From: Rhodoferax sp.
GTDB taxonomy: Bacteria > Pseudomonadota > Gammaproteobacteria > Burkholderiales > Burkholderiaceae_C
Length of the DNA stretch: 63,938 bases
Direction of reading: 5' to 3'
Assembly (NCBI GenBank): GCA_009693325.1
Contig: SHXM01000002.1
Span: 1 to 63,938, forward strand
The notes under the pieces were generated by a model. It was given only the letters and a program-made list of their open reading frames with translations. It did not search any database and was not told the DNA's origin. The position numbers and the translations under genes were made by a program. Shown here piece by piece: positions 408 through 26,411 of the stretch; within the stretch, counting starts at the first letter, position 1, and every line of letters starts with the position of its first letter.

Positions 408-1985
408 ATGAGCGACGCTCAAACCGAAATACAGGCCCCTCGAGGCAAACGAGCGGGCGGCGGGCGCGAAGCCAAGCGGGCCGCACGGTCTGCGAGAAGC
501 AGCAGTTTTGTACCCTACATCACGCGCAAAATCCCTTACTACGAGGTGCTTGACGAAGAAGGGCTGCAAATCATTGAACGCAATGCAGACACCATCCTGG
601 AAGAAACCGGCATCGACTTTCGCGATGACGCTGAAGCCCTGGCGCTGTTCAAGACCGCCGGCGCTGATGTGAAGGGGGAGCGGGTGCGCTTCCCGCGCGG
701 CCTGTGCCGCAGCCTGGTGCAGGCCACTGCGCCACGCGAGTTCACGCAACACGCGCGCAACCCGGCGCACAGCGTGCTCATCGGTGGCAAGCACACGGTG
801 TTTGCACCGGCCTACGGCTCGCCCTTTGTGCGCGATCTGGACCGCGGTCGCCGCTACGCCACCATCGAAGACTTCCAAAATTTCGTCAAGCTGACCTACA
901 TGGCCAACGCCCTGCACCATTCGGGCGGCACGATTTGCGAGCCAGTGGACCTGCCGGTCAACAAGCGCCACTTTGACATGGTGTACGCCCACATGAAGTT
1001 CACCGACAAGCCCTATATGGGCTCGGTCACCCACCCCGAGCGGGCGCGTGATACGGTGGAGATGACCCGGCTTCTGTTTGGCGACGACTACCTGGACCCC
1101 GCCACCGGCAAGCCCAAAACCTGTGTCATCAACCTGATCAACGCCAACTCTCCGATGACCTTTGACGAGACCATGCTGGGCGCGGCCAAGGTGTATGCGC
1201 GGGCCAATCAAGCGACCATCATCACGCCCTTCATTCTGGCTGGGGCCATGTCGCCGGTCACAGTAGCCGGCACTGCCGCGCAGACCCTGGCCGAGTCGCT
1301 GGCTGGCATGGCCTTTGTGCAACTGGTCAACCCAGGCGCGCCAGTGGTGATGGGCAGTTTCGCCTCGTCCATTTCCATGCAATCGGGCGCCCCGACCTTT
1401 GGCACGCCAGAGCCGGCCCTGGTGCTCTACGTGATGGCGGCCCTGGCGCGCCGACTGGGCGTGCCGTTCCGCTCGGGTGGCGGGCTGTGTGGCTCGAAGA
1501 TTTCTGATGCACAGGCAGCTTCTGAGTCGGCCAACACCATGCTGCCAACCTGCTTGGGCGGGGTCAATTTTGTCTTGCACACCGCGGGCTGGCTCGAAGG
1601 CGGCCTGTCCATGGGCTACGAAAAATTCATCATGGATGTCGACCAGGCCGGCATGATGCACACCCTGCTGGGTGGCGTAGACCTGTCGGAGAACGGCCAG
1701 GCCATGGACGCCATTCGAGAGGTTGGCCCGGGCAAGCATTTTTTGGGCTGCGCCCACACCCAGGCCAATTTCGAGCGCGCGTTTTACCGCTCACCGATCA
1801 CCGACAACAACAGCTTTGAGCAGTGGGAGGCCGAGGGCTCGCGCGACCTGACGGCACGGGCCAACGCCTCCTGGAAGAAGCAGCTGGCAGAGTATGAGCT
1901 GCCCCCGATGGATCCGGCCGCCGATGAGGCGGTGCTGGATTACATGAACCGCCGCAAGGCGTCTTTCCCTGATTCAAACGTGTGA
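408..1985 (+). CDS. MttB-family (trimethylamine methyltransferase-like, non-pyrrolysine) methyltransferase
   Basis: A 525-residue protein of the MttB superfamily, which transfers a methyl group from quaternary or tertiary amines to a corrinoid protein or other acceptor. The start at 408 is chosen because AGGAG sits seven bases upstream. A basic Arg/Lys/Gly-rich leader (about residues 8-38) precedes the family motif PYITRKIPYYEVLDEEG. The frame is open throughout, with no in-frame TAG, so it belongs to the non-pyrrolysine branch typified by MtgB, a glycine betaine methyltransferase. No corrinoid protein or reactivase gene is nearby, so the methyl acceptor is unknown. It is convergent with the ABC importer operon and the two stop ends overlap by 12 bp. 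Role in demethylating glycine betaine or a related amine is inferred from context. Confidence 0.82.
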   Translation: MSDAQTEIQAPRGKRAGGGREAKRAARSARSSSFVPYITRKIPYYEVLDEEGLQIIERNADTILEETGIDFRDDAEALALFKTAGADVKGERVRFPRGLCRSLVQATAPREFTQHARNPAHSVLIGGKHTVFAPAYGSPFVRDLDRGRRYATIEDFQNFVKLTYMANALHHSGGTICEPVDLPVNKRHFDMVYAHMKFTDKPYMGSVTHPERARDTVEMTRLLFGDDYLDPATGKPKTCVINLINANSPMTFDETMLGAAKVYARANQATIITPFILAGAMSPVTVAGTAAQTLAESLAGMAFVQLVNPGAPVVMGSFASSISMQSGAPTFGTPEPALVLYVMAALARRLGVPFRSGGGLCGSKISDAQAASESANTMLPTCLGGVNFVLHTAGWLEGGLSMGYEKFIMDVDQAGMMHTLLGGVDLSENGQAMDAIREVGPGKHFLGCAHTQANFERAFYRSPITDNNSFEQWEAEGSRDLTARANASWKKQLAEYELPPMDPAADEAVLDYMNRRKASFPDSNV

Positions 1986-3608
1986 ACGAGCGCCTGAGGC
2001 GGTCTGCGCTCGCAGAGCCAGAACGCCGTCGAGCCAGTCGCTGCGCATCACCGGCACGGCCTTAATCAGCCGCTCGGTGTAGGGGTGATAGGGGCCGTCA
2101 AAAATCGCCTCGGTGGTATCGAATGCAACAAACCCGCCTTGCAGCATCACTGCGGTGCGGTGCGCAATGCGGTGCACCACATCAAGGTCATGGGTGATCA
2201 GCACATAGGACAGACCCAACTCGCTCTGCAAGCGACGCAGCAGTTTGAGGATTTCTTCAGCCACCAGCGGGTCGAGCGCTGAGGTGGGCTCATCGAGAAT
2301 GACCAGATCAGGTTGAGCTGCCAGGGCCCTGGCAATGCAGACTCGCTGCTTTTGCCCGCCCGAGAGCTGCCCCGGCCGGCGCTGCAAGTAATCAAGCGGC
2401 AACTCCACCAGGGTCATGAGTTCTTCAACCCGCCGCAGTGCTTGGCTTCGACTGGCGTCAAAATAAAACTGCACCGGCCTCCCGATGATCTCCAGCAGGG
2501 TTTGCCGTGGGTTGATGGCCACGTCGGGAATCTGGTAGACCAGTTGCATCCGCCGCTTGAGTTCTTTGTCGCGCGCCTTCAGCGTTGCCGGCATGGCTTG
2601 GCCCCGGAACATTAGTTGGCCACTTCTTGGCGGCAATAGCCCGGTGACTATGCGCGCCAGGGTTGATTTGCCCGAGCCTGATTCGCCCACCACTGCCACT
2701 GTCTCACCTTTTTTGACATCCAGCGTGACGCCCTTGATCACATGAAAATCACCATAGTAGGCATGACAATCGACAACAGACAAAACGATCTCTGGCTTGA
2801 CGGTGTGCGCAGCCGCCCGCTCATTGGCCGCAGCCCCCCGCACAGCCACCAGCCGGGCGGTGTAGTCTTGCTGGGCGTTGTGCAGGATCTGGTCGGTCAG
2901 GCCTTCTTCCACCTCTTTGCCCTGGCGCAGCACCTTGATGCGGTCGGCCACCTGCGCCACCACGGCCAGGTCATGGGTGATGTAGAGCGCCGCTGTGCGG
3001 TACTCGCGAATCAGCGACTTGAGCAGGATCAGGACCTCGATTTGTGTGGTGACATCGAGTGCGGTGGTAGGCTCGTCGAGCACCAGCACATCTGGTCGAC
3101 AGGACATCGCCATGGCTGCCATGGCGCGCTGCAATTGGCCACCCGACACTTGGTGCGGGTAGCGCGAACCAAAATTTTGCGGGTCAGGCAGGTCCAGCGA
3201 AGTAAACAGCTGGCGCGCCCAGGCTTCGGCCTGGGTGCGGCTCATGAGCCCATGGATGACAGGCGCCTCGCACACCTGGTCCATCAGGCTGTGGGCGGGA
3301 TTGAAGGCCGCCGCTGCCGACTGGGCGATGTAGGCGATCCGCTTGCCGCGCACATCGCGCCGGCCCTCGGCATCCAGCGCCCGGATGTTGATGCCACCCA
3401 GCATCACCTCGCCGTGCTGAATGTGCACGCCAGCTCGGGCATAACACATGCTGGCCAGACCGATGGTGGATTTGCCGGCGCCGCTTTCGCCAATCAGGCC
3501 GAGCACTTCGCCACGCTGCAGGTGCAGGTCAACGTGGTCAACAATCACATGGCCGGCCACGCTGACCAGGCGCAAGCCAGTGATGTTCAAAATGGTGCTG
3601 TCGTCCAT
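1974..3608 (-). CDS. Peptide-type ABC transporter ATPase, two fused nucleotide-binding domains (DppDF-like)
   Basis: A 544-residue fusion of two ABC ATPase domains, equivalent to DppD plus DppF or OppDF. The first half has Walker A GESGAGKS at residues 40-47, signature VSGGQ and Walker B VLVLDEPT. The second has GESGSGKS near residue 310, signature LSGGQ and Walker B LVILDEPT. Both domains keep the switch histidine in ITHDL. I start at the ATG at 3608, preceded by AAGAAAG; the upstream in-frame TTG at 3617 has no spacing for a ribosome site. It is the last gene of the importer operon and energises uptake through the two permeases upstream. Substrate is not readable from the ATPase; context favours a quaternary ammonium compound. 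Confidence 0.9.
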   Translation of the reverse strand: MDDSTILNITGLRLVSVAGHVIVDHVDLHLQRGEVLGLIGESGAGKSTIGLASMCYARAGVHIQHGEVMLGGINIRALDAEGRRDVRGKRIAYIAQSAAAAFNPAHSLMDQVCEAPVIHGLMSRTQAEAWARQLFTSLDLPDPQNFGSRYPHQVSGGQLQRAMAAMAMSCRPDVLVLDEPTTALDVTTQIEVLILLKSLIREYRTAALYITHDLAVVAQVADRIKVLRQGKEVEEGLTDQILHNAQQDYTARLVAVRGAAANERAAAHTVKPEIVLSVVDCHAYYGDFHVIKGVTLDVKKGETVAVVGESGSGKSTLARIVTGLLPPRSGQLMFRGQAMPATLKARDKELKRRMQLVYQIPDVAINPRQTLLEIIGRPVQFYFDASRSQALRRVEELMTLVELPLDYLQRRPGQLSGGQKQRVCIARALAAQPDLVILDEPTSALDPLVAEEILKLLRRLQSELGLSYVLITHDLDVVHRIAHRTAVMLQGGFVAFDTTEAIFDGPYHPYTERLIKAVPVMRSDWLDGVLALRAQTASGARSHV

Positions 3609-3623
3609 GCCCGGCAATCTTTC

Positions 3624-4457
3624 TTAGAGTTCAGCCTGCGCGCCCGAAGGCCTCGCGTCGATAGACAGCATCCAGTCGACCACCAGATTGACCGACACGG
3701 TGAGCAAGGCAATGGCGGTGGCCGGGTAGATCGGCGCCATCATGCCAAAGTTGATGGCGGCGGCGTTCTCGCGCACCATGCCACCCAGATCAGCATAGGG
3801 CGGCTGGATACCCAGACCAAGAAAAGACAGGCCGGCGATAAACAGGAAGTTAAAGCAAAAACGCAGGCCAAACTCAGACACCAGCGGCGCGCGGGCGTTG
3901 GGCAATATTTCCCGAGTGATCACCCACCACAGACCTTCGCCGCGCAGGCGGGCGGCTTCGACATATTCCATCACCGTCAGGTTCATACCCAATGCGCGAG
4001 ACAGCCGAAACACGCGGGTTGAGTCAAGCACCGCAATCGTCAAAATAAGCACCGGAATGCTGGAGCCAAACACGCCCAAAATAATGAGCGCAAAAATCAG
4101 GCTGGGGATGGACAGCATGACATCGACCAGGCGCGTGAAGAAAATATCCACCCAGCCGCCCACCACGGCGCTGACCAGGCCAGTGAGAATGCCGATCAAA
4201 AAAGACAGCGCCGTGATCGCCAAGGCTACGCCGATGGTCATGCGGCTGCCATACATCATCCGGGTGAGCATGTCGCGGCCGATCTGGTCGGCGCCGAATA
4301 TCATCTTGACCGAGGGCTCGTCCCAGGTGCCACCCACGCTGGCCGACTCAGCGTACGGCGCGAGCCAGGGCGTGAACAAAGAGATAGCCATAAACAGCGC
4401 CACCACGAAGGCGCCAAAGGCGGCTGAGGCGGTGAGCCGGTGACCAAAAAGTTTCAT
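3624..4457 (-). CDS. Peptide-type ABC transporter permease, DppC-like
   Basis: A 277-residue inner-membrane protein of the BPD_transp_1 family with about six predicted membrane spans. The N-terminal cytoplasmic leader and first span (residues about 15-35), followed by a periplasmic loop with GADQIGRDMLTRMMYG, are typical of DppC/OppC/GsiD subunits. The EAA loop that contacts the ATPase is visible near EAARLRGEGLWWVI. It is the second permease of the importer, 15 bp from the ATPase start and 23 bp after the DppB-like subunit, so the three genes are very probably one transcript. Confidence 0.9.
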   Translation of the reverse strand: MKLFGHRLTASAAFGAFVVALFMAISLFTPWLAPYAESASVGGTWDEPSVKMIFGADQIGRDMLTRMMYGSRMTIGVALAITALSFLIGILTGLVSAVVGGWVDIFFTRLVDVMLSIPSLIFALIILGVFGSSIPVLILTIAVLDSTRVFRLSRALGMNLTVMEYVEAARLRGEGLWWVITREILPNARAPLVSEFGLRFCFNFLFIAGLSFLGLGIQPPYADLGGMVRENAAAINFGMMAPIYPATAIALLTVSVNLVVDWMLSIDARPSGAQAEL

Positions 4458-4480
4458 GGTATTTGCAGGGCTCGAAACAT

Positions 4481-5428
4481 TTAGTCTTGCTGGCGCAGGC
4501 GGGGATTGACCAGGATCACCAAAATATCGGCCAGCGTGTTGAGCGCTACAAACACCGTGGCAAAAGTCAGGCCGCAGGCCTGGATGACAGGCACGTCACG
4601 CTTGGCAACCGCATCGACCATGTACTGACCTAGGCCGGGGTAGACAAACACCGACTCAATCACTACAACACCAACCACCAGATAGGCCATGTTCAGCGCG
4701 ACAACGGTGATGATGGGCGCAGCCGCATTGGGCAGCGCGTGCCGAACGATGACCCGCTTGCGCCGGGCGCCTTTGAGGAAGGCCATCTCGATATAGGGTG
4801 TGGACATCACTGAGAGCACCGAGCTGCGGGTCATGCGCAGCATGTGGGCAGCCACCAGCAGCGTGAGCGTGATGGCCGGCAAGGTGGTCTGAAATATGCG
4901 TTCGCCAAAGGTCATGCCTTTGGAGACCATCGCCAGCGGCGGGAACCACTGAAAGTTGACCGCGAAAAAAATAATCAGCAAGTAGGCAACAAAAAATTCA
5001 GGCAAGGAAATGGCGATCAGGGTCAGCACATTGGACAGTCTGTCAGTCAGTTTGCCTTCGTTGATTGCGGCCAATACACCCAGACCAACTGACAACGGAA
5101 TTGCCACCAGTGCCGCATACCCGGCCAAAAACAGAGTGTTGCGCAACCTGGGCAGCAAATCATCCATGATGACGCGTTTGTTGGTGAGGGCCACCCCCAA
5201 GTCGCCCTGCAAAGCGCCGCTCAGCCAGTTCCAGTAGCGTGTCTGCGGCGGCAAATCAAGCCCAAGTTCACGACGGAATATCACCAGAGCCTCAGGCGTT
5301 GCCCCCTGACCCAACACTGCCGATGCAACATCCCCCGGAAGAATTTGCGTGCAGACAAAAATCAGCACAGACACGGCAAACAGGGTCAGTAGGCCCAGGA
5401 ACAGCCGGTTCACTATTAACTTTGCCAT
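4481..5428 (-). CDS. Peptide-type ABC transporter permease, DppB-like
   Basis: A 315-residue membrane protein of the DppB/OppB type. Residues about 9-30 form the first span, followed by the conserved LPGDVASAVLGQGATPEAL segment and the LGLDLP motif of this subfamily. The EAA-type loop reads EMAFLKGARRKRVIVRHALPN. It pairs with the DppC-like permease downstream to form the channel of an importer of peptide-class (cluster C) type. A terminator-like hairpin lies between it and the receptor gene, so the permeases are probably made in smaller amounts than the receptor. Confidence 0.9.
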   Translation of the reverse strand: MAKLIVNRLFLGLLTLFAVSVLIFVCTQILPGDVASAVLGQGATPEALVIFRRELGLDLPPQTRYWNWLSGALQGDLGVALTNKRVIMDDLLPRLRNTLFLAGYAALVAIPLSVGLGVLAAINEGKLTDRLSNVLTLIAISLPEFFVAYLLIIFFAVNFQWFPPLAMVSKGMTFGERIFQTTLPAITLTLLVAAHMLRMTRSSVLSVMSTPYIEMAFLKGARRKRVIVRHALPNAAAPIITVVALNMAYLVVGVVVIESVFVYPGLGQYMVDAVAKRDVPVIQACGLTFATVFVALNTLADILVILVNPRLRQQD

Positions 5429-5511
5429 GACTTGCTAGATCTGAGATAAGGGATGCGGCTTAGCGACCAGGCGTAGGCGAGCACAAGGCCTGGGCGGGCG
5501 GGCCGACATGC

Positions 5512-5593: not shown

Positions 5594-7168
5594 TTAGGCG
5601 AACCAGCCTTTTTCAGCAATGCGGCCATCACCAAAGTCATAGCGCCCTGACGGTGTCAGGCCTTGCAACTTGGGTGTGTAGGCGTCCAGGTAGTCTTGCA
5701 CGGCGTAATTGACCATGCCGGCGTTTTGCGACACCAGTTCTTGACAACGCGCGTACTGCTCCTGGCGTTTTCTCTGGTCGATTTCGACCCGCGCGGCTTC
5801 CAAAGTCCTGGTGAACTCGGCATTTTCGAAATGGCTGTCGTTCCATGGATTGCTCTTGCCGCCGTAAAAAATCGACGTGAGCTGGTTGTCAATGGTTGGG
5901 CGGTTGCCCCAGTAGACAGCGCAAAAAGGTTGCTTGAGCCAGACGTTATCCCAATAACCGTCGCCCGAAACCCGCTTGAGGTCGAGGTTGATGCCTGCCT
6001 TGGACAGCGATTCTTGGAAAATCTGGCCGGCGTCAGTGGCGCCTGAAAACGCGCCCTCGGAGACTTGCAACTCAATGGCACCAGCGTGCTTGGACTTGGC
6101 GAAGTGGAACTTGGCCTTGTCCGGATCGTAGCGGTTCATCACCTGGTTGGGGTTGTAAAACTTCATTTTGGGACCGACGCAGTTGTCGTTGCCAATGGAA
6201 GCAAAACCACTGTAGACGTTGTCTACGATTTTTTGACGGTCGATGCCGAACTTCAAGGCCATCATCAGGTCAGGGTTGCTAAAGGGGGACTTGTCGGTGT
6301 GAGCCACAAAGCAGAAGCGGTTGCCCATGCCCGGCGTGCGCCCGATCTTGAAGCGCGGGTCTCTGGCCAGCAGACCAGCGGTTTTAGGATTAACTCGGTT
6401 GATGAGGTCTACCGTTCCGGTCTGCAAGGCCGTGGTGCGCTGGGATGCATCGCCAATGTAGATCAGTTCAACCCGGTCAAAGTTACCGCGGTTGGGCTTC
6501 CAGTAGTTGCCGGCCTTGCGCTTGAAGGTGGCACGCACGCCGGGCTGGAACTCATCCAAGGTATAGGCGCCCGTGCCGTCGGGCTTGCTGTAGTCCTTGA
6601 AGCCGTTGGGAACCACAATAATGTGGTAGTCGCTGAGGTTGTAAGGCAGGTCGATATTGCCTTTGCCCATGACGATCTGCACCTGAGTGGCGGAGAGCTT
6701 TTTGATTTCCTTAATGTCGGCCAGCAGCGCCTTGGCGGGGGATTTGGTCTCGCCCCGATGCATGTTGAGCGAGTAGATGACATCGTCTGCATCCAGGGTT
6801 TTGCCCGAGGTGAAGCTAATGCCCTTGCGCACATTGAAAATCCAGTCGGCAGCACCAGGCTTGACTTCCCAGCTCTCGAACAACTCACCGGTCGCGTCGC
6901 CGTTGTCAGCGACTTCGACCAAGTTGTTCCAGAGCATCAGGCTCATGTTGATGGGGATGGAGTCTGCATAGGTCAGTGGGTCCAGACTGTCAGACGGTGA
7001 GCCGCCCTCCATGCCCATGCGCAGGGTGCCACCCTTTTTTGGTGCGCCTTGGGCCATGGCTGGCGAAGCGCCCAAGATCGCCGACAAACCGAGTGCCGAC
7101 GCACCGGCGATGAGTTGACGCCGACCCAGGATGAGTCCTGATGCGGTTTGAATTTCAGAATCGTCCAT
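5594..7168 (-). CDS. Peptide-type ABC transporter substrate-binding protein with Tat-like signal (SBP_bac_5)
   Basis: A 524-residue periplasmic receptor of the DppA/OppA class. I start at the ATG at 7168 because AAGGAG lies nine bases upstream; the longer frame would need a TTG. The leader has twin arginines in LGRRQLIAGASALG followed by a hydrophobic stretch and an ASPAMAQ cleavage site, so export through Tat is likely. The mature part shows the class motifs GTLRMG, DADDVIYSLN and YDPDKAK. It is the first gene of the importer operon. Receptors of this fold bind peptides, nickel, opines or other small ligands. Position behind the carnitine-type genes and opposite the MttB-like gene suggests a betaine-like ligand, which is unproven and would differ from the usual ProX/CaiX-type betaine receptors. 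Confidence 0.88.
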   Translation of the reverse strand: MDDSEIQTASGLILGRRQLIAGASALGLSAILGASPAMAQGAPKKGGTLRMGMEGGSPSDSLDPLTYADSIPINMSLMLWNNLVEVADNGDATGELFESWEVKPGAADWIFNVRKGISFTSGKTLDADDVIYSLNMHRGETKSPAKALLADIKEIKKLSATQVQIVMGKGNIDLPYNLSDYHIIVVPNGFKDYSKPDGTGAYTLDEFQPGVRATFKRKAGNYWKPNRGNFDRVELIYIGDASQRTTALQTGTVDLINRVNPKTAGLLARDPRFKIGRTPGMGNRFCFVAHTDKSPFSNPDLMMALKFGIDRQKIVDNVYSGFASIGNDNCVGPKMKFYNPNQVMNRYDPDKAKFHFAKSKHAGAIELQVSEGAFSGATDAGQIFQESLSKAGINLDLKRVSGDGYWDNVWLKQPFCAVYWGNRPTIDNQLTSIFYGGKSNPWNDSHFENAEFTRTLEAARVEIDQRKRQEQYARCQELVSQNAGMVNYAVQDYLDAYTPKLQGLTPSGRYDFGDGRIAEKGWFA

Positions 7169-7578
7169 TGTCAAAAACTCCTTAAGTGTCAATACAAACC
7201 AGCTCGATGCAAGCCGCGATGTCTTTCATGAACAAGAGCACCACCGGGCAGTCAGGGGCAACGAATTTTACTCTCCCAAGCCATCGTAATGGATTTTCAG
7301 GCTGTTTCGGTATCCAGACTTTCCCCTAGATACGGCATGTTTTGGCGTTTTAAGTACCCATGGATGCTGATAGGTTCCAGGGCACGGCCTGGGATAAGCC
7401 TGTGGAACAAAAGTCACCGGGCCATCGCAATGGAATTCACATATTTCTCAAAGCGAAATCCGGCGCTGGGGCGGACAAGGCAAGGGCTGCCAATCGGGCT
7501 CGCCGTGCTGCCGCAGCAAAGACTGGGCCTTGCAGCTCGCTGCCCGGCGCCTCCGATGTTGGTCTCCACAGGGCCGGC
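7169..7578. other. Intergenic stretch, likely promoter region of the ABC importer operon
   Basis: About 410 bp separate the PhnD-like gene (stop at 7579) from the receptor gene (start at 7168), both on the minus strand. The part nearest the receptor gene is AT-richer and carries its ribosome site. I find no convincing gene: short frames on both strands lack start signals and family resemblance. A separate promoter for the importer is likely here, but I cannot point to defined -35/-10 boxes. Confidence 0.4.
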
Positions 7579-8379: not shown

Positions 8380-8390
8380 TTTTGGCACAC

Positions 8391-10162: not shown

Positions 10163-10165
10163 CAA

Positions 10166-19630: not shown

Positions 19631-20824
19631 ATGAAACTCGAATCGATCAAGACCTTTGTCGTCGGCAACCCACCGCCCGGCTTTGGTGGCAAGTACTTTG
19701 TGTTTGTCAAGATCCGCACCGCCTGCGGCATTGAGGGCGTGGGCGAAGCCTATGCCGCCACCTTCAGCCCCCACATCATCGCGGCCATGGCCGAAGACCT
19801 GTTCGCCCGCGTGTTTGCCGGTGAAGACCCAATGCAAACCGAAACCCTGTGGCGCCGCGCCTACGGTGAAGGCTTCTCGCTGCGGCCGGACATTTCGCTG
19901 ATGGGCGTGCTCAGTGCGCTGGAGATGGCCTGCTGGGACATCACTGGCAAGGCGCTGGACCGCCCGGTCTACAGCCTGCTGGGCGGCCTGGTTAACCCGC
20001 GCCTGCGCAGCTACACCTACCTGTACCCCGACGAGACCGAGGACGACTCCTTTTACGGCGACCCGGTTCGCTCGGCAGAACGGGCTGCGGTCTATGTGCA
20101 GCAAGGGTTTACTGCTATCAAATTTGATCCTGTGGGGGGCTATTCGGTGTTTGACCCGCGCCAACCCACGCTGGAACGCATGGACATGTCGGAGCGCTTT
20201 TGCAAGCTGATCCGCGAAGCGGTGGGTGACAAGGCCGACATCCTGTTCGGTACCCATGGCCAGTACACCGTGTCGGGCGCCAAACGCATGGCGCGCCGGC
20301 TGGAAAAATACGACCCGCTGTGGTTTGAGGAGCCAACGCCGCCTGAGCGGCCAGAGATGATGGCCGAGGTGGCACGCCACACCAGCATCCCGATTGCCAC
20401 CGGCGAGCGGCTATGCACCAAGTACGAGTTTGCCCGGGTGCTGGAAACCGGTGCCGCGAGCATTCTGCAGCCCGCGCTGGGCCGCGTGGGCGGCATCTTG
20501 GAATGCAAAAAAATTGCCGGCATGGCCGAGGCGCACTATGCCCAGATCGCGCCACACCTGTACTGCGGCCCGATCGAGGCTGCGGCCAACATCCAACTCG
20601 CCGCCTGCATCCCCAACTTTTTGATTCTGGAAAGCATTCAGCAGCTTGGCGGCTTCCACGCCGAACTGCTCAAGACCAAAATCCAGTGGGAAGACGGCTA
20701 CGTCATCCCCAGCAAAGCGCCCGGCCTGGGTGTGGAACTGAACGAAGAGGTGGCGCTGGCACACCCCTACCACGAGAAGGGCCTGCACCTGAGCATGGCG
20801 CAGCACCCGCTGGGCTACTTCTGA
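19631..20824 (+). CDS. Mandelate racemase / muconate lactonizing enzyme family protein (sugar-acid dehydratase-like)
   Basis: A 397-residue member of the enolase superfamily. The capping domain spans residues 1-125. The barrel shows AIKFDP with Lys164, a FGTHGQ segment on the metal-binding strand, FEEPTPPE, ATGERL, and HLYCGPIEAAA. The last half resembles galactonate-dehydratase-type enzymes (GRVGGILECKKIAGMAEA). Such enzymes abstract an alpha proton of a carboxylate and then dehydrate or epimerise. AGGAA precedes the ATG. It lies between a GMC dehydrogenase and an aldehyde dehydrogenase; substrate unknown. A role on a hydroxylated betaine is possible, but nothing in the sequence proves it. 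Confidence 0.85.
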   Translation: MKLESIKTFVVGNPPPGFGGKYFVFVKIRTACGIEGVGEAYAATFSPHIIAAMAEDLFARVFAGEDPMQTETLWRRAYGEGFSLRPDISLMGVLSALEMACWDITGKALDRPVYSLLGGLVNPRLRSYTYLYPDETEDDSFYGDPVRSAERAAVYVQQGFTAIKFDPVGGYSVFDPRQPTLERMDMSERFCKLIREAVGDKADILFGTHGQYTVSGAKRMARRLEKYDPLWFEEPTPPERPEMMAEVARHTSIPIATGERLCTKYEFARVLETGAASILQPALGRVGGILECKKIAGMAEAHYAQIAPHLYCGPIEAAANIQLAACIPNFLILESIQQLGGFHAELLKTKIQWEDGYVIPSKAPGLGVELNEEVALAHPYHEKGLHLSMAQHPLGYF

Positions 20825-20825: not shown

Positions 20826-22250
20826 ATGAGCGCTTATCTGAACTTCATTGGTAACCAATGGCTGGCCGCTGACGATGGCGCCAGGTTTGCGGTGGACAAC
20901 CCGGCCACCGAGGCACGCTTTGCCACGGTCAGCGCCGCCAGCACCGCGCAGGTGCTACAGGCCTGCGACCAGGCCGCTGCCGCCCAGCGCGGCTGGCGCA
21001 AACTGACCAGCATTGCGCGTGGTACCCATTTGCAGCGCCTGGCCGACGCTTTGGTGGCGCGCCGTGGGCAGATCGGGCAGGCACTGGCCCAGGAAATCGG
21101 CAAAAGCCTGCAAGACGCGACAGACGAGGCGGTGTACGCGGCCGAAGTGACGCGCTACCACGCCGAATGGGCGCGCCGCATTGAGGGCGAGATCATCCCC
21201 AGCGACTCCCCCCGTGAAAACCTGATGCTGCACCGCGAGCCCATGGGCGTGGTGGCCTGCCTGATCCCGTTCAATTACCCGGTCTACACACTGCTGCGCA
21301 AGATTGCGCCGGCTCTAATTGCCGGCAACACGGTGGTGGTGCGGCCCAGCAACAACACGCCCTGCTCCGCGTTTGAGATCGCCCAGGCGGTGCTCGACGC
21401 CGGCCTGCCGCCGGGCGTGGTCAACATCATGGCTATGGGCCACGATCAAGCCCAGGCCATGTGCACCCACCCCAAGGTGGCCATGATCACCCTTACCGGC
21501 GGTCTGAATGCCGGCCGGCGGATGCTGGACTATGCCAAGACCAATATCGCCAAGGTGTCGCTCGAACTGGGCGGCAAGACGCCGGCCATCGTGGCCGCCG
21601 ACGCCAATCTGGACCAGGCCGCCAGCGATATCGTGCGGTCCAAAACCACCAACTGCGGGCAGTTGTGCACGGCGGTGGAGCGGGTCTATGTGCAGATGAC
21701 CGTGCACGATGCCCTGGTGGCCAAGCTCAAAGCCCTATTGGCAGCGCGCGCGTTTGGCGACCGCGCCGCGCAGCCCGACCACATGGGGCCGCTGATCAGT
21801 GCCTCGGCGCGGGACGATATCCACGCCATGGTGCAGCGCGCGGTGGCGCAGGGCGCCCAGCTGGACTGCGGCGGCGTGCTGCCGGGCGGCCCCGGCTTCT
21901 TCTACCCCGCCACCCTGCTGACTCAGGTGCGCCAGGATATGGAGATCGTGCAAGACGAGGTTTTTGGCCCGGTGCTGTGTGTGCTGCCCTACCGCGACAT
22001 CGACCATGCACTGGCGCTGGCGAACGACCATCAGTTCGGCTTGGCCTCAGTGATCTACTCCACCAATTACCAAGACATCATGCAAGCCAGCAACGAGATC
22101 GAGGCAGGCGAGCTCTACATCAACCGCACCCCGGCCGACCCCTACCAGGGCTACCACGCCGGCTGGAAGCGCTCCGGCCTGGGTGGTGACGACGGCAAGC
22201 ACGGCATGCTCGAGTTCACCCAGACCCGGCTTGTGGTCATGAAATATTAG
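20826..22250 (+). CDS. NAD(P)-dependent aldehyde dehydrogenase (lactaldehyde dehydrogenase-like)
   Basis: A 474-residue aldehyde dehydrogenase with catalytic Glu247 in LELGGKTP and Cys281 in NCGQLCTAVE, the oxyanion region IPFNYPVY, and the C-terminal KRSGLGGDDGKHGM motif. The NCGQLC form is that of the AldA/lactaldehyde group rather than of BetB. It begins one base after the preceding stop, so it is translated with the enolase-superfamily gene. It should oxidise the aldehyde made by the GMC dehydrogenase. Confidence 0.88.
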   Translation: MSAYLNFIGNQWLAADDGARFAVDNPATEARFATVSAASTAQVLQACDQAAAAQRGWRKLTSIARGTHLQRLADALVARRGQIGQALAQEIGKSLQDATDEAVYAAEVTRYHAEWARRIEGEIIPSDSPRENLMLHREPMGVVACLIPFNYPVYTLLRKIAPALIAGNTVVVRPSNNTPCSAFEIAQAVLDAGLPPGVVNIMAMGHDQAQAMCTHPKVAMITLTGGLNAGRRMLDYAKTNIAKVSLELGGKTPAIVAADANLDQAASDIVRSKTTNCGQLCTAVERVYVQMTVHDALVAKLKALLAARAFGDRAAQPDHMGPLISASARDDIHAMVQRAVAQGAQLDCGGVLPGGPGFFYPATLLTQVRQDMEIVQDEVFGPVLCVLPYRDIDHALALANDHQFGLASVIYSTNYQDIMQASNEIEAGELYINRTPADPYQGYHAGWKRSGLGGDDGKHGMLEFTQTRLVVMKY

Positions 22251-22796: not shown

Positions 22797-23687
22797 TCAG
22801 GTCGCCACAGAACCCGCCATCTCACGCAACACCCAACGCCGAAACGCCTCAGCTGCCGCGTTAGGTGGTCCGCCCTGGGGCGAGATCAGGTAGTAGGCTT
22901 CCTTCATCGGCAAGGCGAATGGCAGGGGACGCACCAGGCGCCCGGACCGAATCAGGTGGCTAGCCACCGTGTCGTGCGCCAGCGCCACACCCAGGCCCTC
23001 CAGCGCCCATTCCAGGCTGACCGCCCAGGTGCTGGCGCGGTGGACCACGGCTGGCGCGGCGGCACGGCGCTCGGGCTGGGCGTCGAACCAGCTGTCCCAG
23101 CTTTGCAGCGTGCCAGACAGGTCAATCAGTCGCTCCCGGCTCAAGTCTTGCACCGAGTGAATGCGGCTCGCCAGCTCAGGGCTGCACACCGGAAACACAT
23201 GGTCCTGGGTCAGCCGGGTGCCCAAACGACTCTCCCACTTGCCTTGCCCAAACACGATTTCAACGGCGGCGGAGGCGCTGGGCTTTTCCTCTGGCCAGAT
23301 CGAGGTCGCCATGTTCAGCTGCACCCACTCAAACTCTGCCATGAAGCCCGCCAGGCGCGGTGTCAGCCAATAAATCGCGAAGGACAAATTCACATGCAAC
23401 TCGAGCACATGGGGGTCATTGCGGCCGGTCAGCACCTTGGTGCCTTCCTCAAGCATGGCAAAGGCGGCCTGCACGGTAGGCCAATATCCCCGCCCCTCGT
23501 CGGTCAACTCCAGCCCGCGCACCCGGCGCACAAACAGCGGGCGGCCCAGCGCGTTCTCAAGGCTCTTGATCTGCTGGCTGACGGCCGACTGGCTCATGTG
23601 CAGCTCCTGGGCCGCATTGGTGAAGCTCAGCGCCCGGGCAGACGCGTCAAATACACGCAGCCAATTCAGTGGCGGCAGAGCGGCCAT
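22797..23687 (-). CDS. LysR-type transcriptional regulator (GcvA-like)
   Basis: A 296-residue regulator. The winged helix-turn-helix occupies residues about 8-65, with LSFTNAAQELHMSQSAVSQQ as recognition region, and the effector-binding domain follows from about 95. The opening PPLNWLRVFDASARALSF is typical of the GcvA/AmpR branch. It is divergent from the 2OG-oxygenase/HD-protein operon across a short AT-rich gap, the standard layout in which a LysR protein controls its divergent neighbour. Effector unknown; a trimethylammonium compound or phosphonate is a reasonable guess. Confidence 0.88.
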   Translation of the reverse strand: MAALPPLNWLRVFDASARALSFTNAAQELHMSQSAVSQQIKSLENALGRPLFVRRVRGLELTDEGRGYWPTVQAAFAMLEEGTKVLTGRNDPHVLELHVNLSFAIYWLTPRLAGFMAEFEWVQLNMATSIWPEEKPSASAAVEIVFGQGKWESRLGTRLTQDHVFPVCSPELASRIHSVQDLSRERLIDLSGTLQSWDSWFDAQPERRAAAPAVVHRASTWAVSLEWALEGLGVALAHDTVASHLIRSGRLVRPLPFALPMKEAYYLISPQGGPPNAAAEAFRRWVLREMAGSVAT

Positions 23688-23812
23688 GGGTAACTCATTA
23701 GTTATGCATAAGTTTTTCTTATTTTAATGCGCTGTTTTCTTTGCTTGTACTTTTTTTCTGTCTGCGCCAGACTCTGAACGTCTCCAACAAAGCCAGCAGG
23801 GCAGATCAAAAC
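23688..23812. promoter_or_regulatory. LysR / 2OG-oxygenase divergent promoter region with palindrome
   Basis: This AT-rich gap contains TTATGCATAA (23702-23711), a perfect 10-bp palindrome 15 bp upstream of the lysR start codon. It is a candidate autoregulatory site for the LysR protein. The T-rich run that follows is a plausible promoter. No transcription start can be fixed. Confidence 0.4.
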
Positions 23813-24931
23813 GTGTTTGAAATTCAAGTCTCCGATAAGCCCAAAAGCATCCAACTTGTCCTGACAAGGCAGGGCGTGAGCACTGAGTTACCCGCGCTCT
23901 GGTTGCGTGCCCGCAGCAGCTGCAGCAGCCAGCGCGATGCGACCACCGGCCAGCGTCTGATTAACCCGCATCACTTGCCAGACGATCTGATGCTCACTGA
24001 CGCTCGCTGGCAAGACGGGCAGCTTCACCTGGCCTTCAGTGATGGCTTCGCCGGGCTGTTTGACCCGGCAGAACTGCGTGCCGGCGCAGACCTGAGCGAA
24101 GGCTGCCCGATCACAACACCCTGGCGCGCCGATGCCAAGCCGGCCCCGGTCTATCGCTGGGCGGATCTTCAAAGCGACGACGTTTTATACCGTGCCTTGG
24201 TCGATTTTCTGCAACTCGGCTTTTTGCTGGTCCACGACACGCCAATCCAGGCCGACTCGGTGCTGACGATTGCACACCGCTTTGGTTTTGTACGGACCAC
24301 CAATTTCGGCAGTTTTTTTGAGGTGTATTCACGCCCAGACTCGAACGACCTGGCCTACCGGCCAGTCGCACTGGGGCCGCACACCGACAACCCATACCGC
24401 ACGCCTGTCCCCGGCATTCAACTGCTGCACTGCTTGCAAAACAACACCTCGGGCGGCCTCTCCACGCTGGTGGACAGCCTGGCCGTCATCGAGCAGGTGC
24501 GCCTGCTGGACCCGCGGGGCTTTGACTTGCTGTGCCGGGTGCCAGTACGCTTTGAATACCGAGACGCCAGCACGCACCTGGTGGCGGTCAAGCCGATGAT
24601 TGAGATCGACGGCAGCGGCGCACTGTGTGGCGTGCACTACAGCCCGCGTCTGGACGACATTGCGCTGATGTCGGAGGCGGATACCCGCAGCTACCATCGG
24701 GCACGCAAACACCTGGGGCAACTGCTTGAGAGCCCGGCCTTTGAATTGCGCTTCAAGCTCGAGGCAGGCCAACTGATGATGTTCGACAACAACCGCATCC
24801 TGCACGGGCGCACAGCTTTTGACCCGGCTGAAGGACACCGGCAGTTGCAAGGCTGCTACATTGACCGCGACGGCCCCCGCAGCCTGTACCGGGTGCTGCA
24901 CCAACGCGCCGAATCCCAGCGCGCTACCTAG
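23813..24931 (+). CDS. tmpA: Fe(II)/2-oxoglutarate oxygenase, gamma-butyrobetaine-hydroxylase-like; candidate TmpA
   Basis: A TauD-fold oxygenase with an N-terminal DUF971-like domain (about residues 1-90) as in gamma-butyrobetaine hydroxylase. Counting from the GTG at 23813 (372 aa), the iron ligands are His190 and Asp192 in GPHTDNP and His331 in NNRILHGRTAF. Aromatic residues near the site (Tyr172, Tyr182, Tyr195) could cage a trimethylammonium group. The cysteine cluster that binds zinc in animal and Pseudomonas hydroxylases is gone: the region reads WLRARSSCSSQRD with one Cys. The next gene encodes an HD-domain partner, the hallmark of TmpA, which hydroxylates 2-trimethylaminoethylphosphonate. 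True gamma-butyrobetaine hydroxylase remains the alternative. No ATG exists near the start; a TTG at 23741 would add 24 residues. Confidence 0.75.
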   Translation: MFEIQVSDKPKSIQLVLTRQGVSTELPALWLRARSSCSSQRDATTGQRLINPHHLPDDLMLTDARWQDGQLHLAFSDGFAGLFDPAELRAGADLSEGCPITTPWRADAKPAPVYRWADLQSDDVLYRALVDFLQLGFLLVHDTPIQADSVLTIAHRFGFVRTTNFGSFFEVYSRPDSNDLAYRPVALGPHTDNPYRTPVPGIQLLHCLQNNTSGGLSTLVDSLAVIEQVRLLDPRGFDLLCRVPVRFEYRDASTHLVAVKPMIEIDGSGALCGVHYSPRLDDIALMSEADTRSYHRARKHLGQLLESPAFELRFKLEAGQLMMFDNNRILHGRTAFDPAEGHRQLQGCYIDRDGPRSLYRVLHQRAESQRAT

Positions 24932-24944: not shown

Positions 24945-25526
24945 GTGGACACAGTTAATTTTTTACAGATGAAAGACGGCTCGAAAGAAGATTACTTGCT
25001 GCTGCAGGATTTAGAGCACCACTACATTCGGGGCCTACCCGATCGGCTGCTGCTGGCCTTGGCGCGGCTGGACGACTCGCTGCAGGGCTATCAGGTCAGC
25101 CGCCTGGAGCATTCTTTGCAAACGGCCAGCCGTGCCCAAGACGACGGCGCTGACCTCGAGACCATCGTGGCCGCGCTGGTCCACGACCTCGGCGACGAAC
25201 TGTCGCCTGAAAACCATTCTCAGGTCGCCGCGTCCATCCTGCGGCCCTATGTGCGCGCAGAGGTAACCTGGATTGTCGAGATGCACGGCTTGTTTCAGAC
25301 GCAATATTACGCGCACTATTACGGCAAAGACCCCAAGGCCCACCTGGCCTACAAAGACCACCCGTGGTTCGACTCTTGCCAGGCGTTTTGCCAGCGCTAC
25401 GACCAAGCCGCCTTTGATCCGGCCTACCCCAGCAAGTCGTTGGCGCATTTCGAGCCGATGCTGCGTGAGGTGTTTTCGCGCAAGCCTTTCGAAGCGAGCA
25501 CGCTCAAGGAGCGCATCGGACACTAA
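24945..25526 (+). CDS. tmpB: HD-domain mixed-valent di-iron oxygenase, candidate TmpB
   Basis: A 193-residue single HD-domain protein starting on a GTG with AAGGA eight bases upstream, 13 bp after the oxygenase stop. The likely metal ligands are His56 (LEHSLQTA), His80-Asp81 (LVHDLGDE), His91 (ENHSQV), His114 (VEMHGLF) and Asp153 (RYDQAAFD). The 56-to-80 and 91-to-114 spacings match those I recall for PhnZ, and Tyr27 could be the gating tyrosine. PhnZ and TmpB are di-iron oxygenases that cleave the C-P bond of 1-hydroxyphosphonates; TmpB releases phosphate and glycine betaine. The Asp153 ligand in place of a nucleotidase pattern, and pairing with a TmpA-like gene, favour this over a phosphohydrolase. 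Confidence 0.75.
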   Translation: MDTVNFLQMKDGSKEDYLLLQDLEHHYIRGLPDRLLLALARLDDSLQGYQVSRLEHSLQTASRAQDDGADLETIVAALVHDLGDELSPENHSQVAASILRPYVRAEVTWIVEMHGLFQTQYYAHYYGKDPKAHLAYKDHPWFDSCQAFCQRYDQAAFDPAYPSKSLAHFEPMLREVFSRKPFEASTLKERIGH

Positions 25527-25532: not shown

Positions 25533-26411
25533 ATGCGGCTTTCTGACAACTCCCGCGGCATCCTTGCGATGGTCGCAGCTGTTGGGTTTTTTTCGTTGAT
25601 GGACGCTCTCATGAAGCTCCTGGCTGCCAGTTACCCGCCCATGCAAGTGGCCGCAATGAGGGGAATAGCCTCGTTACCCCTGGTTTGCTGTTACGTTCTT
25701 TGGCAGCGTGAAACCGCAAGCTTGTTGTGGGTCCGCTGGCCCTTGCACTTGATGCGCGGCATCATGGGTGTTGTGATGCTGTCACTGTTTGCCTATGGCC
25801 TGCAAACCCTGACGCTGACCGACGCGTACGCCATCTCCTTTATCGCACCCTTGTTGATCACGCTGCTGGCAATTCCATTTTTAAACGAGAAGGCCACCCC
25901 GACGCATTGGCTGTGCCTGTGCGGCGGTTTGGTCGGCGTCTGGATTGCCATGAAACCCAGTGGCGCCGTCATGTTCTCAACCGGTGCGCTGGCTATTTTG
26001 GGCGCTTCTGTTTGCTACGCCGCGTCTGCAGTAACCGGTCGGGTGCTGAGCCGCACAGACACCAGCAGCAGCCTGGTGTTCTGGATGACGCTGCTCATGG
26101 CAGCCGGGGCCGGCGCGCTGGCAGCCCCCGATTGGCAGACGCTGTCGCCCGACCACTGGCCCTTGATCATCGGCCTTGGCGTGACCGGTTTTCTGGGCCA
26201 ACTGACCATCACGCAGGCCTTTCGCTACGGCCAGGCAGCGACGGTTGCGCCATTTGAGTACTCGGCTCTGGTGTGGGGTGCTGGCCTGGACTGGGTGCTG
26301 TGGCAGACCCTTCCCTTTGGCCGAACCCTGCTCGGTGCCGCCATCATCATCGCCTGCGGCGTGTACCTGATCCGAGCCATACACAAACCAGCGCCAAAGC
26401 TTCAAACCTGA
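25533..26411 (+). CDS. DMT-superfamily (EamA) transporter
   Basis: A 292-residue protein with ten predicted spans and two EamA repeats (residues about 8-140 and 150-285). It starts seven bases after the HD-protein stop with AAGG upstream, so it belongs to the same operon. EamA permeases move amino acids, quaternary amines or metabolites in either direction. Here it could export a product or take up the substrate of the TmpAB-like pair; no phosphonate ABC importer is encoded in the window. Confidence 0.85.
   Translation: MRLSDNSRGILAMVAAVGFFSLMDALMKLLAASYPPMQVAAMRGIASLPLVCCYVLWQRETASLLWVRWPLHLMRGIMGVVMLSLFAYGLQTLTLTDAYAISFIAPLLITLLAIPFLNEKATPTHWLCLCGGLVGVWIAMKPSGAVMFSTGALAILGASVCYAASAVTGRVLSRTDTSSSLVFWMTLLMAAGAGALAAPDWQTLSPDHWPLIIGLGVTGFLGQLTITQAFRYGQAATVAPFEYSALVWGAGLDWVLWQTLPFGRTLLGAAIIIACGVYLIRAIHKPAPKLQT

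What the first reader, a model, noticed from the sequence alone, without database searches (positions are those of the whole stretch)
408..26411. Twenty-gene island converging on glycine betaine from several trimethylammonium compounds
Seen: carnitine-degradation enzymes (BKACE, CdhA, thioesterases), a CaiD-like hydratase with acyl-CoA dehydrogenase and ADP-forming CoA ligase, a TmpA/TmpB-like pair, an MttB-family methyltransferase, a serine dehydratase, and four transport systems. Known: carnitine breakdown and the TmpAB route both yield glycine betaine. Inferred: the region is one scavenging module for quaternary amines, with MttB-like demethylation and SdaA at the exit. I do not know of this complete combination being described as a unit.
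Basis: partly seen in the sequence, partly recalled or inferred. Interest (0 to 1): 0.8.

Follow-up and report, generated by a model that had tools for sequence, protein, structure and literature searches.

The report
Patchy island for trimethylammonium compound breakdown
A freshwater bacterium carries a movable set of about 22 genes for breaking down carnitine-like nutrients, and inside it sits a widespread pair of oxygen-using enzymes that resembles a known phosphonate-degrading pair but has lost residues that grip the phosphonate, so it probably attacks a different, still unknown compound.

Summary
The serine dehydratase is only a 46-residue stub at the contig edge (2-139, -); the rest ends contig C86. 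Co-inheritance is supported: in 299 sampled family genomes CdhA, the TmpA-like gene, the enolase-family gene and MttB recur in nearly the same few genomes, with no match in three congeners; gene blocks are shuffled. The carnitine operon (BKACE-CdhA-two thioesterases-acyl-CoA dehydrogenase-CoA ligase-hydratase) and the MttB exit are known chemistry; an MtgC/DUF1638/MetF/MtgD/RamA-type operon lies on C120. A similar island is published for Arctic SAR11.

The TmpA/TmpB reading fails. A better TmpA (439 bits) lies on C142. The window pair belongs to a separate clade: 73 of 73 relatives have Asp at TmpA Asn187, 71 of 73 read Ser-Pro-Arg at 286-288, and 70 of 73 are followed by their own HD class, which lacks the YxxE loop. 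Asp there is the trimethyllysine-hydroxylase state. Most novel reading: the pair cuts trimethyllysine to gamma-butyrobetaine, feeding the neighbouring operon. Untested; substrate unknown. New variant of a known kind.

The parts
2..139 (-). N-terminal 46 residues of an L-serine dehydratase (SdaA), cut by the contig edge
   Evidence: Translation; remaining 415 residues end contig C86 and start at SDH_beta position 46; SdaA-MttB-OppDF side by side in G288:C434.
408..1985 (+). MttB-superfamily (non-pyrrolysine) methyltransferase, candidate quaternary-amine:corrinoid methyltransferase
   Evidence: PF06253 769.9 bits; TIGR02369 260 bits under its cut-off 525; no stop inside; closest solved chain 4yyc; >=85% orthologues in 5 other family genomes.
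1974..5428 (-). Opp/Nik-type ABC transporter: two-domain ATPase (1974-3617) and permeases (3624-4457, 4481-5428)
   Evidence: near MttB in G288, G330, G358 and beside MFS-enolase in G287.
5594..7192 (-). Family-5 solute-binding protein of the Opp-type transporter
   Evidence: PF00496 196.6 bits; export-signal-like N-terminus seen by eye.
7579..8331 (-). Lone PhnD-like (Phosphonate-bd) protein, start uncertain
   Evidence: PF12974 68.5 bits; no permease or ATPase of its own beside it; next to the desaturase gene in G288 and G330.
8391..9332 (-). Membrane fatty-acid-desaturase-type protein, role unknown
   Evidence: PF00487 91.6 bits; histidine boxes at 59, 94, 245.
9380..10165 (-). CaiD-like enoyl-CoA (crotonobetainyl-CoA) hydratase
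   Evidence: NF002936 372 bits, under cut-off 500.
10166..12244 (-). ADP-forming acyl-CoA synthetase, proposed gamma-butyrobetaine/crotonobetaine:CoA ligase
   Evidence: PF13549, PF13607, PF13380; operon kept in G330, G430, G470, partly in L141.
12247..13407 (-). Acyl-CoA dehydrogenase, proposed gamma-butyrobetainyl-CoA dehydrogenase
   Evidence: PF00441 and partners; NF002885 197 bits, under cut-off 540.
13426..13995 (-). 4HBT_2 thioesterase 1 (proposed carnitinyl-CoA thioesterase)
   Evidence: PF13279; CdhB part of NF005716.
14017..14511 (-). 4HBT_2 thioesterase 2 (proposed betainyl-CoA thioesterase)
   Evidence: PF13279; NF005716; next to CdhA in all 7 CdhA loci.
14517..15482 (-). CdhA, L-carnitine dehydrogenase
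   Evidence: NF005471 615.4 bits, cut-off 414.
15526..16458 (-). BKACE, proposed 3-dehydrocarnitine:acetyl-CoA cleavage enzyme
   Evidence: PF05853 320 bits; within 1 kb of CdhA in 6 of the 7 CdhA loci, the seventh being cut by its contig end.
16581..17927 (+). MFS transporter
   Evidence: PF07690.
17982..19601 (+). GMC (choline-dehydrogenase-like) oxidoreductase, substrate unknown
   Evidence: PF00732/PF05199; BetA model 413 bits, under cut-off 732.
19631..20824 (+). Enolase-superfamily protein of a subfamily with GTHGQ motif, function unknown
   Evidence: PF13378; solved relatives 4e5t and 4e4u named only by superfamily; 80-92% identical in 5 family genomes.
20826..22250 (+). Aldehyde dehydrogenase
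   Evidence: PF00171 480.7 bits.
22797..23687 (-). LysR regulator divergent from the dioxygenase pair
   Evidence: PF00126/PF03466; a LysR-family cluster lies near the pair in 48 of 80 loci.
23741..24931 (+). TmpA-like Fe(II)/2-oxoglutarate dioxygenase of a distinct clade (called TmpA2 here)
   Evidence: NF049936 386 bits, cut-off 400; Asp at TmpA Asn187, Ser-Pro-Arg at 286-288; one side of a branch, support 99/89.
24945..25526 (+). HD-domain diiron-oxygenase-like partner of a distinct class (called HD2 here)
   Evidence: Ligand signature H56-H80-D81-H91-H114-D153 conserved, YxxE absent; model nearest PhnZ and TmpB.
25533..26411 (+). EamA/DMT transporter
   Evidence: PF00892.

Best explanation
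This is a modular catabolic island for trimethylammonium compounds, shared patchily among Comamonadaceae. Shown by sequence: a carnitine operon whose enzymes can take L-carnitine through 3-dehydrocarnitine (CdhA) and betainyl-CoA (BKACE) to glycine betaine (thioesterase), with a CoA branch (ADP-forming ligase, acyl-CoA dehydrogenase, hydratase, second thioesterase) that by analogy brings gamma-butyrobetaine and crotonobetaine to carnitine. Inferred: glycine betaine is then demethylated by an MttB-family protein with the corrinoid system on C120, and the carbon leaves through sarcosine, glycine, serine and SdaA. The TmpA-like/HD pair is co-inherited with the carnitine genes but is not the phosphonate pair TmpA/TmpB: it keeps the iron sites and the aromatic cage for a trimethylammonium head, and has changed the acid-binding end, so it should hydroxylate and then oxidatively cleave a trimethylammonium compound whose other end is not a simple phosphonate or carboxylate.
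For: Families. Profile in 299 family genomes: CdhA at >=73% in 8, TmpA2 at >=59% in 8 (7 shared), enolase at >=80% in 6, MttB at >=85% in 6; Fisher p 1.6e-12 for CdhA/TmpA2, 3.3e-7 per genus without the window's genus. Three congeners with ParC 83-85% give no match, while G358 with ParC 73% has all four. Block synteny. Corrinoid operon C120. TmpA2/HD2 class; anchors from PMC9296572 and YxxE from PMC8177086 (passages); second, above-cut-off TmpA on C142.
Against: No activity or expression data. MttB, CdhA, the enolase block and TmpA2 often lie on different contigs or tens of kb apart, so linkage is loose. Profile tests ignore relatedness beyond genus collapse. TmpA2 genomes need not have CdhA: 32 of 48 searched do, 0 of 6 Alteromonas. 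The CoA-branch enzymes are below their carnitine-specific NCBIfam cut-offs. Arg288 of TmpA is kept in 72 of 73 TmpA2, so some acid binding may remain; and TmpA-type rows themselves vary at 286-288 (only 3 of 9 read Asn-Asn-Arg), so position 287 alone is a weak marker.
Confidence: 0.72

Rival explanations
1. The TmpA2/HD2 pair is simply a divergent TmpA/TmpB and makes glycine betaine and phosphate from 2-trimethylaminoethylphosphonate.
For: Best family model is TmpA, 386 of 400 bits; nearest folds are TmpA, PhnZ, TmpB; same gene order; a PhnD-like protein is in the island. The best of 28 relatives reaches E 6e-120 against that model, about the cut-off score by my estimate. TmpA-type rows also vary at 287.
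Against: Asn187 is Asp in 73 of 73 relatives and Asn in 9 of 9 TmpA-type rows; Asn287 is Pro in 72 of 73. HD2 lacks YxxE in 71 of 71 rows, TmpB-type rows keep Y and E in 7 of 7. The same genome and Halomonas urmiana carry both pairs.
Confidence: 0.12
2. TmpA2 is a gamma-butyrobetaine hydroxylase that makes carnitine for CdhA, and HD2 is an accessory phosphohydrolase-like protein.
For: Co-occurrence with CdhA; direct adjacency of MFS-TmpA2-HD2 to the carnitine operon in L141 and L144; BBOX genes sit in the published SAR11 carnitine island.
Against: gamma-Butyrobetaine dioxygenase model 245 of 415 bits; the BBOX acid anchors Asn191 and Asn293 are replaced; HD2 keeps the full diiron signature and follows TmpA2 in 70 of 73 cases; Alteromonas has the pair without a CdhA match.
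Confidence: 0.13
3. The region is a chance pile-up of unrelated catabolic modules in a gene-rich Burkholderiales chromosome.
For: Modules are separable: G330 has enolase, CdhA and MttB roughly 26 and 48 kb apart on one contig and TmpA2 on another, G287 has CdhA on a different contig from the rest; a lig aromatic cluster follows directly.
Against: Phyletic profiles coincide; G288 repeats Opp-SBP-desaturase-PhnD-TE-CdhA-BKACE-MFS-GMC-enolase-ALDH-LysR; homologues of the enolase gene and of the C86 hydroxyacid and aldehyde dehydrogenases recur beside TmpA2-HD2 in L160 (45-65%), and with GMC and ALDH in Halomonas gemina L173 (36-66%).
Confidence: 0.1

Closest known systems
Arctic SAR11 glycine betaine island (PMC12421898)
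   Same: 17-20 gene horizontally moved island with carnitine dehydrogenase, BKACE, thioesterase, BBOX-type dioxygenases, choline-dehydrogenase-type enzyme, ALDH, 3-hydroxyisobutyrate dehydrogenase, ABC and DMT transporters (section 7 read).
   Different: That gene list names no HD-domain oxygenase, MttB, CoA ligase, acyl-CoA dehydrogenase, enolase-family protein or Opp-type transporter. I did not compare sequences.
Aerobic MtgBCD glycine betaine demethylation of Ruegeria pomeroyi (PMC12478193)
   Same: MttB-family protein, separate corrinoid protein, pterin protein, MetF paralogue, RamA and DUF1638, with CdhABC and SdaA raised on N-osmolytes.
   Different: Here the MttB gene is on C1 and the corrinoid operon on C120; the paper screened marine bacteria and reports Alpha-, Gamma- and Deltaproteobacteria (section 7), not Betaproteobacteria.
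TmpA/TmpB, 2-trimethylaminoethylphosphonate catabolism (structures 6npa-6npd)
   Same: Fe/2OG dioxygenase followed by HD diiron-oxygenase-type gene; nearest folds.
   Different: Two of three phosphonate anchors and the YxxE loop absent; separate clade; real counterpart on C142.
Trimethyllysine hydroxylase (TMLH)
   Same: Asp at the position of BBOX Asn191 (TMLH Asp231, thought to bind the alpha-ammonium; passages of PMC7764450).
   Different: Family model only 165 of 268 bits; the residue that I take to match TMLH Asn334 (an inference, via BBOX Asn293) is Pro; TMLH has no HD partner (recalled).
Rhizobium-like strain HK4 gamma-butyrobetaine to carnitine route (PMC2131755)
   Same: Route described as analogous to fatty acid degradation, in a strain that also has carnitine dehydrogenase (passages).
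   Different: Genes of HK4 not compared; the ligase here is the ADP-forming fused type.

Membership tests
TmpA | NCBIfam NF049936 score of 400 bits | tested here: not met
   385.8 bits; C142 paralogue 438.9 bits.
TmpA | Phosphonate-binding Asn187, Asn287, Arg288 | tested here: not met
   Asp, Pro, Arg in the window; Asp at 187 in 73 of 73 and Ser-Pro-Arg at 286-288 in 71 of 73 relatives; TmpA-type rows: Asn187 in 9 of 9, Asn-Asn-Arg in 3 of 9; residue roles from PMC9296572 passages.
TmpA | Aromatic residues around the trimethylammonium group and HxD...H iron ligands | tested here: met
   F-F-Y against Y-F-Y in 6npb; H179, D181, H320 (numbered from base 23846) invariant in 28 rows.
TmpB/PhnZ | H...HD...H...H...D diiron signature | tested here: met
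   H56, H80, D81, H91, H114 in 71 of 71 rows, D153 in 70 of 71 (one gap).
TmpB/PhnZ | YxxE substrate loop | tested here: not met
   Leu46 and Tyr49 at Y24 and E27 of PhnZ; Tyr49 in 71 of 71, TmpB-type rows Y and E in 7 of 7.
TmpB/PhnZ | Fold | tested here: met
   Model pLDDT 93.4; ten best PDB matches are PhnZ and TmpB, query TM 0.59-0.66.
Trimethyllysine hydroxylase | Asp at BBOX Asn191 | tested here: met
   Alignment, column; role from PMC7764450.
Trimethyllysine hydroxylase | NCBIfam TIGR02410 score of 268 bits | tested here: not met
   164.4 bits.
L-carnitine dehydrogenase CdhA | NF005471 above 414 bits | tested here: met
   615.4 bits.
Dehydrocarnitine BKACE | Cleaves 3-dehydrocarnitine with acetyl-CoA | not testable with these tools
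   Family PF05853 met; near CdhA in 6 of 7 CdhA loci.
Trimethylamine methyltransferase MttB (Pyl) | In-frame amber codon and TIGR02369 above 525 bits | tested here: not met
   260 bits, no stop inside.
Aerobic MtgBCD system | MtgC, MtgD, MetF-like, RamA-like and DUF1638 genes in the genome | tested here: met
   C120; the two MtgC models score 205 and 171 bits, below their cut-offs of 370 and 310.
Arctic SAR11 island | Sequence-level homology and gene order | not tested
   Only the gene list in the text was read.

The most novel reading that the evidence does not exclude
TmpA2 and HD2 form an unrecorded oxygen-dependent route from trimethyllysine to gamma-butyrobetaine: TmpA2 hydroxylates C3 of trimethyllysine (Asp168 holding the alpha-ammonium, Arg268 the carboxylate; numbered from base 23846), and HD2 cleaves the C2-C3 bond in the manner of myo-inositol oxygenase, giving gamma-butyrobetaine plus glyoxylate and ammonium in place of aldolase and aldehyde dehydrogenase. 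The neighbouring CoA branch and CdhA-BKACE would finish it to glycine betaine, with the Opp-type transporter bringing in trimethyllysine or its peptides. This would make most of the island one linear pathway. Close alternatives are other trimethylammonium compounds with an amine or hydroxyl end, such as betaine-lipid head groups, which would give the GMC-enolase-ALDH block a job.
Probability: 0.2. Interest if true: 0.82.

Novelty: new variant of a known kind. Interest (0 to 1): 0.57.

Why it matters
If the pair's substrate is new, a widespread pair of oxygenases found from freshwater Comamonadaceae to Halomonas, Alteromonas and SAR116 is at risk of being lumped with phosphonate degradation, and a route for a common methylated compound is missing from nutrient-cycle models. 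The island also places corrinoid-type glycine betaine demethylation genes in the same genome as carnitine catabolism in freshwater Betaproteobacteria, and a named strain (Rhodoferax lacus IMCC26218, which has both TmpA2-HD2 and CdhA) offers a place to test it.

Tried and rejected
Rejected: TmpA2/HD2 as plain TmpA/TmpB (Asn187, Asn287 and YxxE fail). Rejected: GMC-ALDH as BetA-BetB (413 of 732 and 356 of 669 bits). Considered and left open: enolase-family protein as sugar-acid dehydratase; in G287 the enolase-ALDH genes are followed by an MFS and, by eye, glycerate kinase and pyruvate kinase genes, which fits glyoxylate or glycerate handling as well as sugars. Considered: the SdaA call as a mistake, since PF03313 hits only C86; the stub was seen at the contig edge. 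Led nowhere: Rfam (0 matches), tRNA (0), G+C shift of the island (0.624 against 0.62-0.64 beside it). Neighbour clustering within 8 kb: HD2-type in 69 of 80 loci, LysR in 48, ALDH 8, hydroxyacid dehydrogenase 6, enolase 5, GMC 4; by eye also a BCCT-type transporter (6) and a sulfatase resembling choline sulfatase (4). So outside Comamonadaceae the steady core is TmpA2-HD2, often with LysR. The TmpA2 model has a low-confidence loop at 166-191, the very region of Asp168, so I rely on the alignment for that residue. 3 of 73 TmpA2 lack HD2 within 500 bp: L146 ends 97 bp after the match; L151 and L196 show no such gene just downstream. Of 9 TmpA-type rows, 7 are followed by a TmpB-type HD, 1 (L197) by an HD2-type, 1 by none.

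Rows and caveats: the four profile searches used different limits (E 1e-60, 1e-90, 1e-150, 1e-100). CdhA gave 23 of 299 genomes; 8 at >=73% were counted, 15 at 39-51% were not. G430 CdhA is a 166-residue piece. G407 (70% complete) has TmpA2 twice, no CdhA match, and MttB only at 59%. G470 has CdhA only. G287 has no MttB match. G432 enolase (59%) was not counted. ParC was found in 22 of 24 genomes, not in G407 and G430. 'TmpA2' and 'TmpA-type' rows were sorted by which of the two proteins of this genome matched better, before residues were read. For one search I gave 48 of the 80 loci. The tree warns of long branches among TmpA-type rows. In some searches the HD query was in the wrong frame; it was corrected for and later.

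Literature: listings for a trimethyllysine HD-oxygenase route or for MttB with Limnohabitans or Rhodoferax were seen (25 of 67 listed; 20 of 117; 7 of 7; 12 of 60; 12 of 6,318); no listed title or start of abstract described either. Only open-licence PMC papers are held.
Full report
What the window is. It is a whole contig (C1, 63,938 bp) of a 2.77 Mb, 190-contig draft genome, 89% complete. The nearest named record found with the TmpA-like protein is labelled Comamonadaceae/Limnohabitans (L124): 98% identical there, and 91-99% across thioesterase 2, CdhA, BKACE, MFS, GMC, enolase, ALDH, LysR, TmpA-like, HD, EamA and the lig genes that follow. So this stretch of the arrangement is seen in a second assembly.

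Gene content. Profile scans confirm 22 genes at 408-26411. The minus-strand run BKACE-cdhA-TE2-TE1-acd-acs-ech-desaturase-PhnD-like has gaps of 0-59 bp; MFS-GMC-enolase-ALDH and TmpA-like-HD-EamA are two plus-strand runs with gaps of 1-54 and 6-13 bp. The ALDH is 546 bp from LysR. Genes of a lig (protocatechuate 4,5-cleavage) cluster and topoisomerase IV subunits follow and are not part of the island.

The left edge. The remaining 415 residues end contig C86 and start at position 46 of the SDH_beta profile. In G288:C434 one contig carries, in order, ferredoxin-like, HyuA-like, SoxB-like (by eye), SdaA, MttB and OppDF genes, so C86 very probably adjoins C1.

Exit route. MttB here is non-pyrrolysine; its nearest solved chains are 4yyc (767 bits), then 2qne (413) and a glycine betaine methyltransferase 9yce (412). 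Two paralogues exist: C27, next to a DAO/GCV_T dehydrogenase, and C185, next to an old-yellow-type flavoenzyme (by eye). C120 carries a corrinoid protein, DUF1638, DUF5981, a MetF-like protein, a methyltetrahydrofolate:corrinoid methyltransferase (363 bits, cut-off 259) and a RACo-type activator. That is the gene set of aerobic glycine betaine demethylation published for Ruegeria pomeroyi, where CdhABC and SdaA also rise on N-osmolytes (PMC12478193, first part of results, section 7 and discussion read). Which of the three MttB proteins takes glycine betaine cannot be told here.

Co-inheritance. In 299 sampled genomes of the family, CdhA at >=73% identity is in 8, TmpA-like at >=59% in 8, enolase at >=80% in 6 and MttB at >=85% in 6. 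The sets are CdhA: G000, G287, G288, G330, G358, G430, G470, G504; TmpA-like: the same less G470 plus G407; enolase: G000, G287, G288, G330, G358, G430; MttB: G000, G288, G330, G358, G430, G504. Fisher tests give 1.6e-12 for CdhA with TmpA-like, and 3.3e-7 when collapsed to genera and leaving out the window's genus. These tests do not model the tree. Three sampled congeners (ParC 83-85% identical) give no match in any of the four searches, while G358 (ParC 73%; 42% G+C in a 13 kb stretch) has all four. In the wider order, a CdhA above the curated cut-off is in 4 of 250 genomes, the window's included, and a TmpA above its cut-off in 1 of 250, the window's own.

Synteny. G288 keeps Opp-SBP-desaturase-PhnD-TE2-CdhA-BKACE-MFS-GMC-enolase-ALDH-LysR without the CoA branch; G330, G430 and G470 keep the CdhA-TE2-TE1-acd-acs-ech operon (G330 and G470 with BKACE; G430 is cut by its contig end); G358 keeps MFS-GMC-enolase-ALDH-LysR-hydroxyacid dehydrogenase-TmpA-like-HD; G287 keeps Opp-SBP, MFS-enolase-ALDH and LysR-TmpA-like-HD on one contig, with CdhA on another. 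In L141 and L144 MFS-TmpA-like-HD faces the carnitine operon directly. The unit is therefore a set of blocks that tend to travel together, not one fixed operon.

The dioxygenase pair. The genome has a second TmpA on C142 that passes the curated cut-off (438.9 against 400 bits) and is followed by a PhnZ/TmpB-type HD gene; nearby are a type I phosphodiesterase-family protein and an ALDH that I would name phosphonoacetate hydrolase and phosphonoacetaldehyde dehydrogenase from memory. The window protein scores 385.8. In TmpA, Asn187, Asn287 and Arg288 bind the phosphonate (passages of PMC9296572; numbering checked). In 73 relatives found among 80 loci, position 187 is Asp in 73 and positions 286-288 are Ser-Pro-Arg in 71 (others SPK and SSR); the aromatic positions are F-F-Y in all 73. 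Nine TmpA-type rows all have Asn at 187, but at 286-288 only 3 of 9 read Asn-Asn-Arg, so the firm marker is 187. The clade is one side of a branch with support 99/89, and 70 of 73 are followed within 500 bp by the window-type HD gene, while 7 of 9 TmpA-type rows are followed by the TmpB type. Halomonas urmiana (L190) has both pairs in tandem. Several of the 80 loci are the family genomes again and many are near relatives, so the rows are not independent.

The HD partner. Over 71 rows it keeps the diiron ligands, but where PhnZ and TmpB have the YxxE loop it has Leu, Ile or Met (one gap) and an invariant Tyr, and Asp where PhnZ has His62; the 7 TmpB-type rows have Y, E and H (loop described in PMC8177086 passages). 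The AlphaFold2 model (pLDDT 93.4) is nearest PhnZ and TmpB (query TM 0.59-0.66), with myo-inositol oxygenase weaker. So it looks like an HD oxygenase, but it is not a TmpB by its defining loop.

Which substrate. Asp at BBOX Asn191 is the state of trimethyllysine hydroxylase, where it is thought to bind the alpha-ammonium (passages of PMC7764450). That suggests trimethyllysine. An HD oxygenase acting on 3-hydroxytrimethyllysine in the manner of myo-inositol oxygenase would yield gamma-butyrobetaine, the entry to the adjacent CoA branch. This is inference. Against it: the residue that I take to match Asn334 of the hydroxylase is Pro, the family model scores 165 of 268 bits, and 16 of 48 searched genomes with the pair, including all 6 Alteromonas, have no CdhA match.

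What is known already. Carnitine to glycine betaine by CdhA, BKACE and thioesterase is established (described for Pseudomonas aeruginosa in a passage of PMC12482172); a route from gamma-butyrobetaine analogous to fatty acid degradation is known from strain HK4 (PMC2131755 passages). Half of 16 Arctic SAR11 genomes carry a horizontally acquired 17-20 gene island with much of this content, including carnitine dehydrogenase, BKACE, BBOX, choline dehydrogenase, ALDH, 3-hydroxyisobutyrate dehydrogenase, thioesterase and a DMT transporter (PMC12421898, section 7 and passages). Hence 'new variant of a known kind'. The new element is the separate TmpA-like/HD class and its tie to these genes.

Noticed in passing
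G000:C142, L068 68-11345: A second TmpA above the curated cut-off (439 bits) with a TmpB-type HD gene, EamA, zinc alcohol dehydrogenase (by eye), FAD/GcvT-type dehydrogenase (by eye), ALDH and a type I phosphodiesterase-family protein: the likely true 2-trimethylaminoethylphosphonate locus.
   Followed up: partly
window 19631-20824: Enolase-superfamily protein of a subfamily with GTHGQ where sugar-acid dehydratases have an Asp metal ligand (recalled); 80-92% identical in five family genomes, whose ParC, where found (4 of 5), is 73-85% identical; solved relatives such as 4e5t carry no function name.
   Followed up: partly
window 7579-9332: Desaturase-type membrane protein and PhnD-like protein stay next to each other in the window, G288 and G330; role unknown.
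   Followed up: partly
L007 4637-7430 (C86): Hydantoinase/oxoprolinase-A-like protein and a protein without Pfam match (4Fe-4S-like by eye) next to SdaA; both also in G288:C434, about 5 kb from SdaA; 39-41% HyuA homologues lie near the TmpA-like gene in G330, G504, L127 and L146.
   Followed up: partly
window 26697-32958: Protocatechuate 4,5-cleavage (lig) cluster directly beside the island, also in L124.
   Followed up: no
L190 10.0-13.8 kb and L197 10.0-12.7 kb: Two dioxygenase-HD pairs in tandem; in L190 one of each type; in L197 a very divergent TmpA-like row with Asn at position 187 precedes a window-type HD gene.
   Followed up: partly
L104 (C71) 3133-7929: Methionine synthase appears split into a homocysteine-binding and a pterin/B12 part, by eye; the genome thus seems to have MetH besides the MtgC/MtgD-type operon.
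   Followed up: no
neighbour clusters with representatives in L184; L161: BCCT-type transporters (cluster of 6 loci, also L161) and a sulfatase resembling choline sulfatase (4 loci), named by eye, lie near the TmpA-like/HD pair, which again points to trimethylammonium substrates.
   Followed up: partly
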